Shown: positions 30,193 to 51,850 of the stretch, one piece after another
Layout of the letters: every line of letters begins with the position of its first letter
How positions within the stretch are numbered: the first letter of the stretch is position 1
Assembly: GCA_963924555.1 (NCBI GenBank)
Contig: OZ004586.1
Location: 5,662,501-5,726,500 of the forward strand
Direction: 5' to 3'
DNA: 64,000 nt
Origin: Crambe crambe
Taxonomy: Eukaryota; Porifera; Demospongiae; Poecilosclerida; Crambeidae
The notes under the pieces: model-generated
What the model saw: only the letters and a program-made list of their open reading frames with translations
Told to the model about the DNA's origin: nothing
Database searches by the model: none
Program-made: the position numbers and the translations under genes

Positions 30193-31962
30193 TTATGATA
30201 GTGGATTGTCATCAGTCTCTGTGTGCAGCAGTTGAGTCTGGTCATCATCACTTGTAACATCATCTACACATTTAATTAAAAAGAAAAAATTTGTTACATA
30301 ATTGCACAAGCTACATTCACTTAACCTAAAGGACAAAGGATTCACAGCTATATTTTCCTCAACACTCATTACTTAAGCTAGATATAAACTACTTGTGATG
30401 TAAGGCAATGTGACGTAGTGCAACCTTACCTAATCGTTCCTCAGAAAAGAGATTGACATCATCATTACCAAGGTCAGCATGCACACTGAAACGTCCATAA
30501 CGAGGCTTTTTGTAATGGGAGCTACACGGATAACAACAAAAACAAACAAACAAAACAATAATAACAAAACAAAATAAACAAACTGATTTGGTACTCTGGT
30601 GTTTGAAGGACTAACCAAGAAATAATGGCTTCCCTATTAAGTACCAAATTATACTATCAGAGAATATGATAGTACTCTCTAAGTAGGGATGGCACAGATT
30701 GCCCCATTGGACTAATACTTAGTATTTTCTTTTATAACTCCAGAATACTTCCCTCCTACACCTTCAATGTGCTAGGACTCAAGTATGAAGAGCAAAAGAA
30801 AAAGCAGTATCATTTACAGCGAAAAATCGCAGTTTACATCTGGTCGTTTATTTCAGAAATGGTTCATTCAAATGCTATAATTTTTATACCACACTACTCA
30901 GAATTGACTGCGCTATAAACCTTTAACTCGACATGTCATTTCACAACTTGCTAGCTTTCAACGCAGACATTTTTATGCCCCACCCCTGTACACGTGATTC
31001 TTGGACCTTGACCTCCAACTGACTAGCTTTCTATGCTCAGAGCATCAGTAAAGGCCTTAAAAAATTATACATAAAATTAGGTCAATGGCAATCTTATTAT
31101 AAACTGTATAGATAACATTAGTCCTTCCAAATCAGATTCATTTTGGCTCATACAATATTATGATGAAACCTCCAATGAACTACATAGCTACAATACATGA
31201 ATTATAACTTCAATAGCAGGATCACAGCATCCAATAAAATAATATATAAAAAATTAGTGTGTGTGGTTCAAAAAAGTTCAGCAACAAGAGAGTGAACTTC
31301 AGTCAAGTAACCCCTTACCCATCACCAATATTACCAAGCTACAAGCCAACTATTTCTACTTCACTCCCTTTATATCTCATCTTGGCCTGTCATGGGATGG
31401 AGTAGGAATAGTTAGCTTGTAGTTTGGTAATATTGGTGATGGGTAAGGGGTTACTTGACTGAAGTTCACCTCTCGTTGCTGAACTTTTTTGAACCACACA
31501 CAGCCATCCCTACTTTTTTTTTTAATATTTAGAATAATCCTTTACTTGTGTACATTTAAGGTCAGTATGATACAATAGTAAAGACTGAGTGGCAATCCTG
31601 GGAAAATTTGTAAGTTACATGCCATGAGCAAGCAGCTTGAGTTGTACAGGAGCATTGTACTAGACATTGAAGCACTGATGATGACTACTGTATGGTAGTT
31701 GAAATGTTAAATTCTTGACTAGTGATCGATATTAATATTACCAAGTATTAGACTTACATAGCTTTTGATATGACAATAGTCACTAAAGCAGTAATGGCAA
31801 TAACAACCACAAAACCAGCAATCAAGCCTCCAATAAGTCCACCTATGTTAACCTCACCACCACCACCTACATAGGTACAATATTTACCATTAGTCTCTGT
31901 ACTTATTGTTGCTAGTCAAATCATACCAAGAGGTTTGGGAGAAGGCTCTTCACTTGGAGTAA
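30193..31962 (-). other. Receptor exons 35-38: stalk, transmembrane helix, cytoplasmic tail
   Basis: Exon 35 (31927-31962) encodes a Pro/Glu-rich stalk, [11 protein letters not shown]. Exon 36 (31758-31866) encodes [20 protein letters not shown] plus VTIVIS, a clear membrane span. Exon 37 (30430-30521) gives a basic juxtamembrane [12 protein letters not shown] with two tyrosines and then an acidic stretch. Exon 38 (30193-30263) ends [29 protein letters not shown] fits the acidic dileucine consensus [DE]xxxL[LI] for AP-complex sorting, so endocytic trafficking is plausible. No kinase or ITAM is present. Confidence 0.85.
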
Positions 31963-49900: not shown

Positions 49901-51850
49901 TCCACATTGCCAGCTGTCAATCTTGCTGTGTTATTGGAATTCCGAGAGCCATTTGCAAGACGAATAGGAAGGTAGCTTCTAGTGAAAGTAGCTGGAAAGT
50001 TTGATACAACAATATATTTATATGCATCATCCTGTCTTTCAGGAGTGATTTCTTAATAAATAAGCACTACAGTGCTCACGCTGCTAGTCACTTTCTCATG
50101 CAATGTCTGTGTGCAATTGTTTCTAGTATCTTGATGGGATACACACTCACTATTAGAGCAGCGAACCCCAGCATCCTCGTAATGACGACAGTTATGTATA
50201 CCCCATCCTTGGAATGAACAGTCTTCAAGATGAGTCTCATTCCCAACACAATGTACATTATCCATCCAAATTGTTCCCGTTCCTCGACCAAATCCAGCAT
50301 AGAGAACTGCTGCTAGGGCATGAGTAAAGCCAAGCTGTCGACAAACTACATTAGCATCATGGATGTCCCAGTAGTCATCACACACTGTGCCCCAAGACCC
50401 ACTATGATAGATCTCAACCCGTCCTTCACTTGAGTTAGTACCATTCACCAATCTCACTGCAGCACCTATCATAAAAATATCCTCTCTTAGAATTCAATAC
50501 TAATGTTAAGTTCTGCAAAGATTCCATGTAGAATAATCCAGTCATTTGATGAACAAATATTGCTTCACACTGAAAGGTTTTTATCCATATTGGAACAGAC
50601 AATGGCCCCTCGTATATAACATGAGTCAGCATGATATAGGGAGACATTTTTTAGCTTCCAGTGTTTACTAACCATTGCCGGGAATGTTTGGGGATACAAT
50701 TTTGCTCTGTTATACATAAATTGAAGAGAAACTTAAATTGGTTAATTAATTGTATCACTAAAGCAGGCAGAATGTATGGATGTAGCAATTTGTGGTATGC
50801 AATCAGCTATATGTTAAAACACTCTTAGTGAATACTGCTATCATTATAGACTTATCAAGTTACAGTCACGAGTCTTACACACTTGATATGATTACAGTGT
50901 GGGCTTGGGGATGCTAAATTTTAAACCTCATTCATGTGTTGTGATGCACTCATTAAACATAGGAAATAATTATGGATGACAAGTGGTCTACTTTGAAAAG
51001 TGACACACAGATGCAAAGAAATGAGATATGGGAATTGGCAGAGAAATTTCTATTTCATACGTACCCTCCTAGTTTGTTTTTTGTTGTTGTTTTTTTTGTC
51101 TACAGAGTACTTACTGTCAGCACACACCACTCCAACATCATACAGATGACTCTGGCAGTAACCTGGCACATAATGCCAACCACTGTTGGGACAGTCAAAA
51201 AGGTTCTGCTCTGTTCCAGAACATCTCACTCTATAAAGCAATGATGAGGCATTAGTTTGACCAAAAGAACTGCTTGCACTTGAGACAGCACGAACTGCTG
51301 ATGAGAAGCCGGCAGTACGACAAGCAACGACAGCATCCTGGTAAGTCCACAAATAGTCACAGATAGTTCCCCATGTGCCATTATGATAAACTTCTACGTA
51401 ACCACTGTACTGATGTCCAAGGTTTCCAGAGTTAGATGGGTTCCAGATCCTTAATTGTGCACCTTCACATTATAACAGGAAGAAATTCATGGACTTTAAT
51501 CATACAGATTAGCTAGCACAACCCTAGTCATTTATCAAACCTCCCAGTCTTTAGAAGATCTATCATCACAGGGAAATATTCCTCCCTGACTAGCGCTGAA
51601 GTTATTTTTGGCACAGCATAACTATTAACTAATGACATCCATCAACCACAATGATAATAATAATAATAATAATAAATTAATAATAACGTACTACTAAATA
51701 AAAACACCAACATCTACAAGCCTCTAGATAACTGATTCAGTGAAACTTCCATCATCTACTTAGCTAGCTATTAAAGTACTTACGCTGGGTCTGTGCTTGT
51801 ACAGAGATAAGGGATCCACAGAGCAAGAGCATTGCTTTGACAGACGCCAT
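30193..51850 (-). CDS. Giant SRCR/CCP membrane receptor (sponge aggregation-receptor type), 38 exons
   Basis: Predicted about 2343 residues: signal peptide, 14 SRCR, 11 CCP/sushi, short stalk, one transmembrane helix, 54-residue tail. All 38 exons have GT-AG borders and a continuous frame of 7032 bases from the ATG at 51850 to the TAA at 30193. Every intron between domains is phase 1, the mark of exon shuffling; introns inside SRCR domains are in phases 0, 1 or 2. The SRCR domains I counted have the six-cysteine (group A) pattern. The order SRCR-CCP-TM-tail resembles, from memory, the Geodia cydonium aggregation receptor; the ligand there is the extracellular aggregation factor. A role in cell adhesion, self recognition or microbe binding is inferred. 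There are no breaks in the frame. A decayed copy of its 3' end lies just downstream. Confidence 0.88.
30655..31535. repeat. Dispersed repeat ending in a foldback (copy 2), in receptor intron 36
   Basis: It matches 6733-7651 along most of its length (GATAGTACTCTCTAAGTAGG, GTGCTAGGACT, CCCCACCCCTGTACACG). The terminal hairpin 31258-31535 has arms with GTTCAAAAAAGTTCAGCAAC, GAGTGAACTTCAGTCAAGTA and ACCCCTTACCCATCACCAAT. Confidence 0.7.
31963..33483 (-). other. Receptor intron 34 (1.5 kb)
   Basis: It contains the CA microsatellite and a more GC-rich patch at 32190-32520. That patch has a 64-residue antisense frame with no recognised family. No exon is needed by phase. Confidence 0.5.
32551..32686 (+). 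repeat. CA dinucleotide microsatellite, about 68 units
   Basis: An uninterrupted ACAC run of about 136 bp. The CVCVCV open frames on the other strand are artefacts of it. Confidence 0.95.
33484..38057 (-). other. Receptor exons 24-34: CCP/sushi domains 1-11
   Basis: One exon per domain, every exon phase 1-1: 37866-38057, 37401-37580, 37058-37234, 36511-36696, 36202-36375, 35543-35725, 34660-34845, 34292-34465, 34005-34181, 33726-33911 and 33484-33663. Each has the four-cysteine sushi pattern with the conserved Trp (for example [20 protein letters not shown]). They alternate between two subtypes. One resembles [20 protein letters not shown] with a CNPGYHP centre (CCP1, 4, 7, 10). The other has longer hydrophobic openings such as [13 protein letters not shown]. 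This periodicity of three suggests the array grew by block duplication. The donor of CCP2 (GTCCTC) is atypical. Confidence 0.87.
39040..39470 (+). pseudogene. Penelope-like element 3' fragment with GIY-YIG endonuclease
   Basis: On the strand opposite the receptor gene, in the intron inside SRCR13: [20 protein letters not shown], then [13 protein letters not shown] and, one base out of frame, [15 protein letters not shown]. The KGVVYxIxC..C...YIGETGR pattern is the start of the GIY-YIG nuclease of Penelope-like retroelements. It is followed by [20 protein letters not shown]. Frameshifts and loss of the upstream reverse transcriptase show a dead 5'-truncated copy. Confidence 0.7.
43385..43520 (+). 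repeat. 21-bp tandem repeat within the SRCR7 intron
   Basis: Six units of GGTTGTGAAATTAGTGGTAA with A/C and T/C variants, between receptor exons 11 and 12. The repeated VVKLVVK and PLPLVSQ open frames come from this array. Confidence 0.85.
45752..45913. mobile_element. pogo/Tc1-like MITE of 162 bp
   Basis: The left end is CAATGGAACCTCTATAATC. The right end in reverse complement is CAGTGGAACCTCTCTATA. A TA dinucleotide flanks each end. CAGTGGAACCTC-type termini with TA duplications are usual for pogo/Tigger-related elements. There is no coding capacity. Confidence 0.65.
45920..46350. repeat. Cluster of inverted ACCAGTGTA / TACTGGTTGTA repeats
   Basis: The left half has AACCAGTGTATATGATATAT and AGAACCAGTGTACATGATAT. 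The right half has GTGTACTGGTTGTATGTATA and CACTGGTTGT. The two halves face each other around about 46100. Confidence 0.55.
46901..51850 (-). other. Receptor exons 1-10: signal peptide and SRCR1-6
   Basis: Exon 1 (51784-51850) encodes [20 protein letters not shown], a signal peptide. SRCR1 is exon 2 (51115-51462) and SRCR2 is exon 3 (50151-50465, [19 protein letters not shown]). SRCR3 is exons 4-5 (49818-49991, 48805-48987) and SRCR4 is exons 6-7 (48567-48723, 48318-48505). SRCR5 is exon 8 (47837-48025) plus the start of exon 9. SRCR6 is the rest of exon 9 (47443-47724) plus exon 10 (46901-47080). Exon 9 is unusual because it holds the end of one domain and the start of the next without an intron. 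SRCR5 is the most divergent ([10 protein letters not shown] instead of GTVCDD). The exon 9 donor (GTGCTT) is weak but required by frame. Confidence 0.85.

What the first reader, a model, noticed from the sequence alone, without database searches (positions are those of the whole stretch)
30193..51850. Complete 38-exon SRCR14-CCP11 membrane receptor with intact frame
The hand-built model joins 38 exons without a break from signal peptide to tail. A continuous frame of 7032 bases with matching phases at 37 junctions is very unlikely by chance. The architecture fits the sponge aggregation-receptor family, thought to mediate cell adhesion and self recognition, but here with eleven CCP domains and a defined tail.
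Basis: partly seen in the sequence, partly recalled or inferred. Interest (0 to 1): 0.78.

Follow-up and report, generated by a model that had tools for sequence, protein, structure and literature searches.

The report
Sponge SRCR–CCP membrane receptor gene
The sequence holds one large, apparently intact sponge gene for a cell-surface receptor with 14 scavenger-receptor and 11 complement-type domains; it has two sister genes, belongs to a known kind of receptor, and is a concrete candidate for testing how sponge cells recognise microbes or each other.

Summary
On the minus strand, 51850-30193 encodes one 38-exon type I membrane protein: signal peptide, 14 SRCR, 11 CCP, one transmembrane helix, short acidic tail. 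My model is 7,038 nt, 2,345 aa, 37 of 37 introns GT-AG; Pfam finds 14 SRCR and 11 Sushi. Real support comes from two paralogues on contig C18, open throughout, with 14 SRCRs each and identical phases at 23 of 23 (A) and 22 of 22 (B) shared introns; both replace the suspicious 3,150-nt gap by a 54-nt intron. The family has a fixed 14-SRCR head, with a SALSA-type metal site at the same ten positions, and a CCP stalk of 11, 4 or 8 domains. Best reading: a calcium-dependent multivalent receptor with an endocytosis-type YxxΦ tail motif. The aggregation-receptor role is compatible but untested. No transcript evidence was available. New member of a known kind.

The parts
51784..51850 (-). Exon 1: start codon and signal peptide ([19 protein letters not shown]...)
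   Evidence: paralogue A has a 49-nt signal-peptide-like exon ending in the same phase
51115..51462 (-). Exon 2: SRCR1 (51451-51122), metal site lost
   Evidence: same exon length (348 nt) in both paralogues
50151..50465 (-). Exon 3: SRCR2, metal site kept
48805..49991 (-). Exons 4-5 (49991-49818, 48987-48805): SRCR3, metal site kept
48318..48723 (-). Exons 6-7 (48723-48567, 48505-48318): SRCR4, metal site kept
46901..48025 (-). Exons 8-10 (48025-47837, 47724-47443, 47080-46901): SRCR5 and SRCR6, sharing the middle exon; both metal sites lost; SRCR5 highly diverged
43751..46900 (-). Intron 10, 3,150 nt, carrying two dispersed repeat families; 54 nt in both paralogues
43150..43750 (-). Exons 11-12 (43750-43617, 43348-43150): SRCR7, metal site kept
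42189..43019 (-). Exons 13-14 (43019-42827, 42334-42189): SRCR8, metal site kept
41385..41928 (-). Exons 15-16 (41928-41792, 41580-41385): SRCR9, metal site kept
40783..41280 (-). Exons 17-18 (41280-41083, 40905-40783): SRCR10, metal site kept
40290..40628 (-). Exon 19: SRCR11, metal site kept; most conserved position (79% to A)
   Evidence: PDB relatives include CD163, CD5L, DMBT1
38678..40141 (-). Exons 20-22 (40141-39933, 39836-39529, 38817-38678): SRCR12 (metal site lost) and SRCR13 (kept), sharing the middle exon
38248..38577 (-). Exon 23: SRCR14, metal site kept
37866..38057 (-). Exon 24: CCP1 (type a)
37401..37580 (-). Exon 25: CCP2 (type b); weak donor GTCCTC
37058..37234 (-). Exon 26: CCP3 (type c)
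36511..36696 (-). Exon 27: CCP4 (type a)
36202..36375 (-). Exon 28: CCP5 (type b)
35543..35725 (-). Exon 29: CCP6 (type c); weak donor GTATTC
34660..34845 (-). Exon 30: CCP7 (type a)
34292..34465 (-). Exon 31: CCP8 (type b)
34005..34181 (-). Exon 32: CCP9 (type c)
33726..33911 (-). Exon 33: CCP10 (type a)
33484..33663 (-). Exon 34: CCP11 (type b)
31927..31962 (-). Exon 35: 12-residue membrane-proximal linker
   Evidence: copy in the downstream decayed duplicate; no counterpart in the paralogue models
31758..31866 (-). Exon 36: transmembrane helix ([19 protein letters not shown], 31825-31769)
   Evidence: alignable TM exon with the same phases in both paralogues
30430..30521 (-). Exon 37: cytoplasmic tail with YGRF (30499-30488), aligned to YRQL in both paralogues
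30193..30263 (-). Exon 38: acidic end of the tail and stop
24216..27848 (-). Decayed partial duplicate of the gene's 3' half (pieces of CCP4, 5, 6, 9, 10, 11, linker, TM, tail; 80-92% DNA identity)

Best explanation
One intact gene for a sponge type I cell-surface receptor, one of three 14-SRCR paralogues found in this genome. SHOWN from sequence: domain order, exon phases, paralogy, fixed 14-SRCR head, variable CCP stalk (11, 4, 8), single helix, alignable tails. INFERRED: ten of the fourteen SRCRs keep the acidic site-2 triad that in SALSA/DMBT1 holds a cation and is needed for ligand binding, so the head should bind polyanionic or glycan ligands multivalently and in a calcium-dependent way, while SRCR1, 5, 6 and 12 serve as spacers or for other contacts; the CCP stalk holds the head off the membrane; and the YxxΦ motif just inside the membrane lets clathrin adaptors internalise receptor and cargo, as with CD163. 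The most likely natural task is capture and uptake, or sensing, of microbial or extracellular-matrix particles.
For: 14 SRCR and 11 Sushi by Pfam. Two paralogues, open throughout, with 14 SRCRs each, same phases at 23 of 23 introns (A) and 22 of 22 (B), and the same last two phases; 13 of 14 SRCR positions form one branch in the tree, 9 with starred support. Site-2 D, D, E kept in 10 of 14 SRCRs in each of the three genes and lost at the same four positions; the residues are those named in PMC7043408 (passages), where D1019A and D1020A abolished binding. Solved relatives include CD163, CD5L and DMBT1. CD163 is calcium-dependent, short-tailed and has a YREM endocytosis motif (PMC12273918, passages). 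The window's YGRF aligns with YRQL in both paralogues. A/B dN/dS is 0.44 overall, 0.35 in SRCRs.
Against: No transcript, protein or binding data. A YxxΦ match at one tyrosine arises by chance about one time in three (my estimate), and A and B are near-copies (95% identical), so both the motif and the metal-site pattern rest on about one independent comparison; the shared pattern is partly common ancestry. The paralogues' TM and tail exons were not found by similarity (tblastn with exons 1 and 35-38 had no hit in C18 at E 0.01) but by hydropathy and reading frames. DQTQLL of the window tail is not kept in A or B. A/B CCP dN/dS is 0.97 over 247 codons, so the stalk may be weakly constrained. SRCRs here have six cysteines, unlike group B CD163. 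CD163 ranks first partly because its nine SRCRs sum their scores.
Confidence: 0.55

Rival explanations
1. It is the sponge aggregation receptor (or its orthologue): its SRCR head binds the aggregation-factor complex between cells and its main job is cell adhesion or self recognition, not uptake.
For: A review describes the putative Geodia cydonium receptor as a membrane molecule of SRCR domains and SCRs linked to the aggregation factor, with Ca2+ involved in the linking galectin's dimerisation (PMC4557014, passages). From memory only: the Geodia molecule has 14 SRCRs, 6 SCRs, one TM and a tail, so the 14 would match.
Against: No Geodia sequence or primary paper available. An allograft transcriptome in Amphimedon reported no significant enrichment of aggregation-factor adhesion genes, and its text holds no mention of SRCR (PMC5450542, passages). 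Three paralogues with very different CCP numbers fit a small recognition family as well as a single adhesion receptor.
Confidence: 0.25
2. Pattern-recognition or symbiont-sensing receptor whose output is signalling rather than endocytosis; the acidic tail recruits a partner.
For: SRCR genes respond to microbial cues or symbiosis in other sponges (PMC6208332, passages; PMC5179597, passages). Tails of all three genes share an acidic C-terminal block.
Against: Pfam finds no signalling domain in the tail at E 0.01. I could not tell whether the responding SRCR genes in those papers belong to this subfamily.
Confidence: 0.2
3. Two genes: SRCR1-6 as one secreted protein, SRCR7-14-CCP-TM as another, separated by the 3.15-kb gap; or an unexpressed gene.
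For: The gap is by far the longest intron (next 1,521 nt); with 30 of 37 introns in phase 1, phase agreement there says little.
Against: Both paralogues join SRCR6 to SRCR7 through 54-nt introns; the gap carries two repeat families (59 matches elsewhere among the best candidates scored); frame intact throughout; pN 0.30 against pS 0.69 to A (pS near saturation).
Confidence: 0.04

Closest known systems
Geodia cydonium putative aggregation receptor (SRCR/SCR; Blumbach 1998, seen only as cited in other papers)
   Same: Membrane molecule built of SRCR domains and SCR/CCP repeats (PMC4557014, passages); 14 SRCRs if my memory of that paper is right
   Different: 11 CCPs here (6 in Geodia, recalled); orthology, ligand and cellular role not tested
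CD163 (M130), human endocytic scavenger receptor
   Same: Tandem SRCRs with acidic cation sites, one TM, short tail with a YxxΦ motif (YREM; PMC12273918, passages); top-ranked PDB chains for SRCR11
   Different: Nine class B SRCRs and, as described there, no CCP stalk; here fourteen six-cysteine SRCRs plus CCPs
DMBT1/SALSA
   Same: Cation-site residues D1019, D1020, E1086 present in 10 of 14 SRCRs
   Different: DMBT1 combines SRCRs with CUB and zona pellucida domains (PMC3100851, abstract); here CCPs, a TM helix and a tail
Paralogues A (C18:6218197-6206909) and B (C18:6235590-6218962) of the same genome
   Same: 14 SRCRs, same exon phases, TM and tail
   Different: 4 and 8 CCPs; 58% and 56% amino-acid identity to the window protein; no signal-peptide exon found for B in the 1.5 kb scanned, and B has a GC donor after SRCR11

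Membership tests
SRCR superfamily, group A | SRCR domains (PF00530) above the curated cut-off | tested here: met
   14 stretches, 1,309.9 bits against a cut-off of 26.1
SRCR superfamily, group A | Six conserved cysteines per domain (group A as defined in PMC10855680, introduction) | tested here: met
   6 Cys in 14 of 14 window domains and 14 of 14 in A; 13 of 14 in B, whose SRCR13 has 7
CCP/Sushi proteins | Sushi domains (PF00084) above the curated cut-off | tested here: met
   11 stretches, 277 bits against a cut-off of 20.7
Sponge aggregation receptor (Geodia SRCR/SCR type) | SRCR domains plus SCRs in a membrane protein | tested here: met
Sponge aggregation receptor (Geodia SRCR/SCR type) | Six SCRs (number recalled, not from a call) | tested here: not met
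   11 here, 4 and 8 in the paralogues; the number clearly varies within the family, so I do not treat it as defining, and I leave membership undecided
Sponge aggregation receptor (Geodia SRCR/SCR type) | Sequence orthology to the Geodia gene | not testable with these tools
   no collection of sponge sequences at hand; primary paper not held
Sponge aggregation receptor (Geodia SRCR/SCR type) | Binds aggregation factor / mediates reaggregation | not testable with these tools
   needs cells
CD163-type endocytic receptors | Class B SRCRs (eight cysteines) | tested here: not met
   six in 14 of 14: works like, not a member
CD163-type endocytic receptors | YxxΦ endocytosis motif in a short tail | tested here: inconclusive
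   YGRF / YRQL aligned at one position; function untested

The most novel reading that the evidence does not exclude
A receptor family in which recognition and reach evolve separately: the 14-SRCR head is frozen in number, exon phase and which ten positions carry a metal site, while the CCP stalk grows and shrinks by tandem duplication of small CCP sets (a three-domain unit in the window gene, a two-domain unit in paralogue B), so that stalk length sets the distance at which sponge cells engage each other or microbes and may vary between individuals as a recognition trait.
Probability: 0.25. Interest if true: 0.65.

Novelty: new member of a known kind. Interest (0 to 1): 0.4.

Why it matters
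As far as the papers opened here show, the molecular identity of the sponge aggregation receptor still rests on Geodia work of the 1990s. A complete gene, two paralogues and exact residues to test (ten predicted metal sites, one tail tyrosine), in a Mediterranean sponge whose life cycle has been closed in vitro (PMC5179597, passage), would make adhesion against uptake directly testable. The fixed-head, variable-stalk pattern is also a clear evolutionary hypothesis.

Tried and rejected
Rejected: frame continuity as proof. Rejected: the DP's first model, which bridged the long intron with false exons at 46649-44109, skipped CCP2 and ended in a CA repeat; corrected by hand. Rejected: the two-gene reading (paralogue introns of 54 nt; repeats in the gap). 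Rejected: DQTQLL as a conserved sorting signal (absent in A and B). Rejected: applying the 'group B in Geodia' remark of PMC10855680 to the aggregation receptor; its reference 25 is a different, fibronectin-SRCR-CCP protein. Set aside as chance or overlap: further Pfam hits (SRCR_2 and Hepsin-SRCR on the SRCRs; HRM, 31.3 bits against a cut-off of 26.2, lying on CCPs; YecR and DUF2997 below their cut-offs).

Led nowhere: sponge check through silicatein-like Peptidase_C1 genes, 20 of 121 matches read by longest frame only, no serine signature (recalled) seen, inconclusive; a scan of prokaryote genome contigs with the SRCR11 peptide gave 29 pattern matches, 0 confirmed; papers on Crambe crambe SRCRs: one search listed 10 of 260, one of the ten holding both names, and there in separate passages.

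Against my reading or dropped: the simple best-identity partner is colinear for only 21 of 28 window-paralogue SRCR comparisons (SRCR5, 12 and 14 fail for both, SRCR2 for B); SRCR5 is not one group in the tree, four groups (2, 9, 10, 14) lack starred support, and the bootstrap had not fully settled. For the paralogues, false DP exons were dropped by hand and tail and signal exons added by hand. The A/B CCP dN/dS rests on an alignment of 4 against 8 domains. Several CCP hits in A and B are partial. Pfam was run on the 2,353-aa version of the protein, before exon 21 was shortened by 8 codons. SRCR1 search: 150 candidates scored, so the count of three genes is a lower bound.
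Full report
WHAT IS THERE. The gene lies on the minus strand. Profile HMMs seeded by hand and run on open frames found 14 SRCR starts and 14 SRCR ends between 51451 and 38252, and 11 CCPs between 38046 and 33497. A splice-aware dynamic programme guided by those hits found most of the same exons. A first assembly held coordinate slips that gave stops; one search mended them, and one acceptor was later moved to fit the paralogues. The final model has 38 exons, 7,038 nt and 37 of 37 GT-AG introns. Pfam, on the version 8 residues longer, gives 14 SRCR and 11 Sushi stretches.

IS IT MORE THAN CHANCE. Not by frame alone. A programme that picks junctions only to lengthen the frame reached 8.0-9.5 kb in 8 of 8 first-order Markov sequences (72-83 exons) and 7.6 kb on the opposite strand (64 exons). 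With a stronger intron penalty, 10 of 10 random sequences gave 5.3-6.4 kb in 33-43 exons, against 10.1 kb in 50 exons on the gene strand. The claim rests instead on domain content and on relatives.

RELATIVES IN THE SAME GENOME. A search with SRCR1 gave three clear places: the window and two on contig C18 (E 1.2e-34 and 8.5e-34); the next match, E 3.3e-19, lies in another SRCR of paralogue B (150 candidates scored). Fetched and modelled, these are two tandem genes, A and B, with 14 SRCRs each and open frames. Phases agree at 23 of 23 introns (A) and 22 of 22 (B, whose first exon I did not find), and at the last two. Twelve of 23 shared exons have the same length in the window gene and A, and 23 of 23 differ by multiples of three. 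A tree of 42 SRCRs puts 13 of 14 positions on single branches, 9 with starred support; SRCR5 fails, its window copy being very diverged. By plain best identity only 21 of 28 comparisons are colinear. I read this as a 14-domain head that predates the three genes. Identity to A is 58% and to B 56%; A and B are 95% alike. The paralogues' TM and tail exons were found by hydropathy and reading frame, not by similarity search, and then aligned.

ONE GENE OR TWO. The 3,150-nt gap between SRCR6 and SRCR7 is the obvious place for a gene border. In A and B the same junction is a 54-nt intron, and the window gap contains two dispersed repeat families, with 59 matches elsewhere among the best candidates scored. 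I take it as one intron enlarged by insertions.

HEAD, STALK, TAIL. At the positions of the SALSA/DMBT1 cation site 2 (D1019, D1020, E1086; PMC7043408, passages) 10 of 14 SRCRs keep D, D, E in each of the three genes, and the same four (1, 5, 6, 12) have lost it. The match of positions is by alignment to the motif, not by structure, and A and B being near-copies it is about one independent comparison. Window CCPs fall into three types in the order abc abc abc ab; B has a, then a two-domain pair three times, then one more; A has four. So the head is fixed and the stalk varies. Tails are alignable: YGRF in the window lies opposite YRQL in A and B, with an acidic C-terminus in all three. A/B dN/dS is 0.35 for SRCRs and 0.97 for CCPs (rough).

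MECHANISM. Shown: architecture and conservation. Inferred: calcium-dependent multivalent binding by ten SRCRs, a spacer role for the stalk, and adaptor-mediated internalisation through YxxΦ, by analogy with CD163, which is calcium-dependent, short-tailed and carries YREM (PMC12273918, passages; see also PMC2906472, passages). CD163 chains also rank first among solved structures for SRCR11, partly because their nine domains sum. Adhesion through the aggregation factor is a serious rival, not excluded.

HOST. Three contig lengths seen here, C9 8,843,633, C18 6,567,827 and C20 6,340,956, equal 8.84, 6.57 and 6.34 Mb of chromosomes 6, 15 and 17 of Crambe crambe; total 143.14 against 143.20 Mb, 119 contigs against 124 scaffolds (PMC12166358, passages). 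This is 3 of 3 lengths checked, with a constant offset of three in numbering. It is an inference, not a name given by a tool; a check through silicatein was inconclusive.

NOVELTY. The kind is known: a sponge membrane molecule of SRCRs and SCRs (PMC4557014, passages), and SRCR expansions in sponges are well described (PMC10855680, introduction and passages). I found no report of this gene in the listings of searches, which cover open-licence PMC papers only. The new points are the intact 38-exon model, the three-gene 14-SRCR family, the position-specific metal-site pattern and the variable stalk.

Noticed in passing
window 27848-24216 (-): Decayed partial duplicate of the gene's 3' half (CCP4 to tail pieces), with CCP copies split between frames or missing cysteines, 80-92% DNA identity to the gene.
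   Followed up: partly
window 28324-28865 and 29998-30187: 29-base tandem repeat starting a few bases after the stop codon and again beside the decayed duplicate; the exact consensus unit occurs only 3 times in the genome, all in this window.
   Followed up: partly
window 11878-13191 (-): Uninterrupted 438-aa sulfatase frame (PF00884, E 2.4e-42) in an otherwise intron-rich region.
   Followed up: no
window 55510-56418 (+): Reverse transcriptase frame (PF00078, E 1.7e-26), probably a retroelement upstream of the gene.
   Followed up: no
window 22376-23809 (-): 478-aa open frame with only weak cupin-like matches, below their cut-offs.
   Followed up: no
G000:C9:5729051-5765834 (+), just past the window: Three similar clusters, each of five mostly split SRCR domains, about 14.4-14.8 kb apart, which look like tandem gene copies.
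   Followed up: no
G000:C18:4048001-4078000 (L024-L026): About 29 of 30 kb filled almost end to end with SRCR hits on the minus strand and no CCP hit.
   Followed up: no
G000:C18:6225651-6223696 (L012), paralogue B: A CCP exon pair repeated three times, the first two copies identical in protein: very recent stalk expansion.
   Followed up: partly
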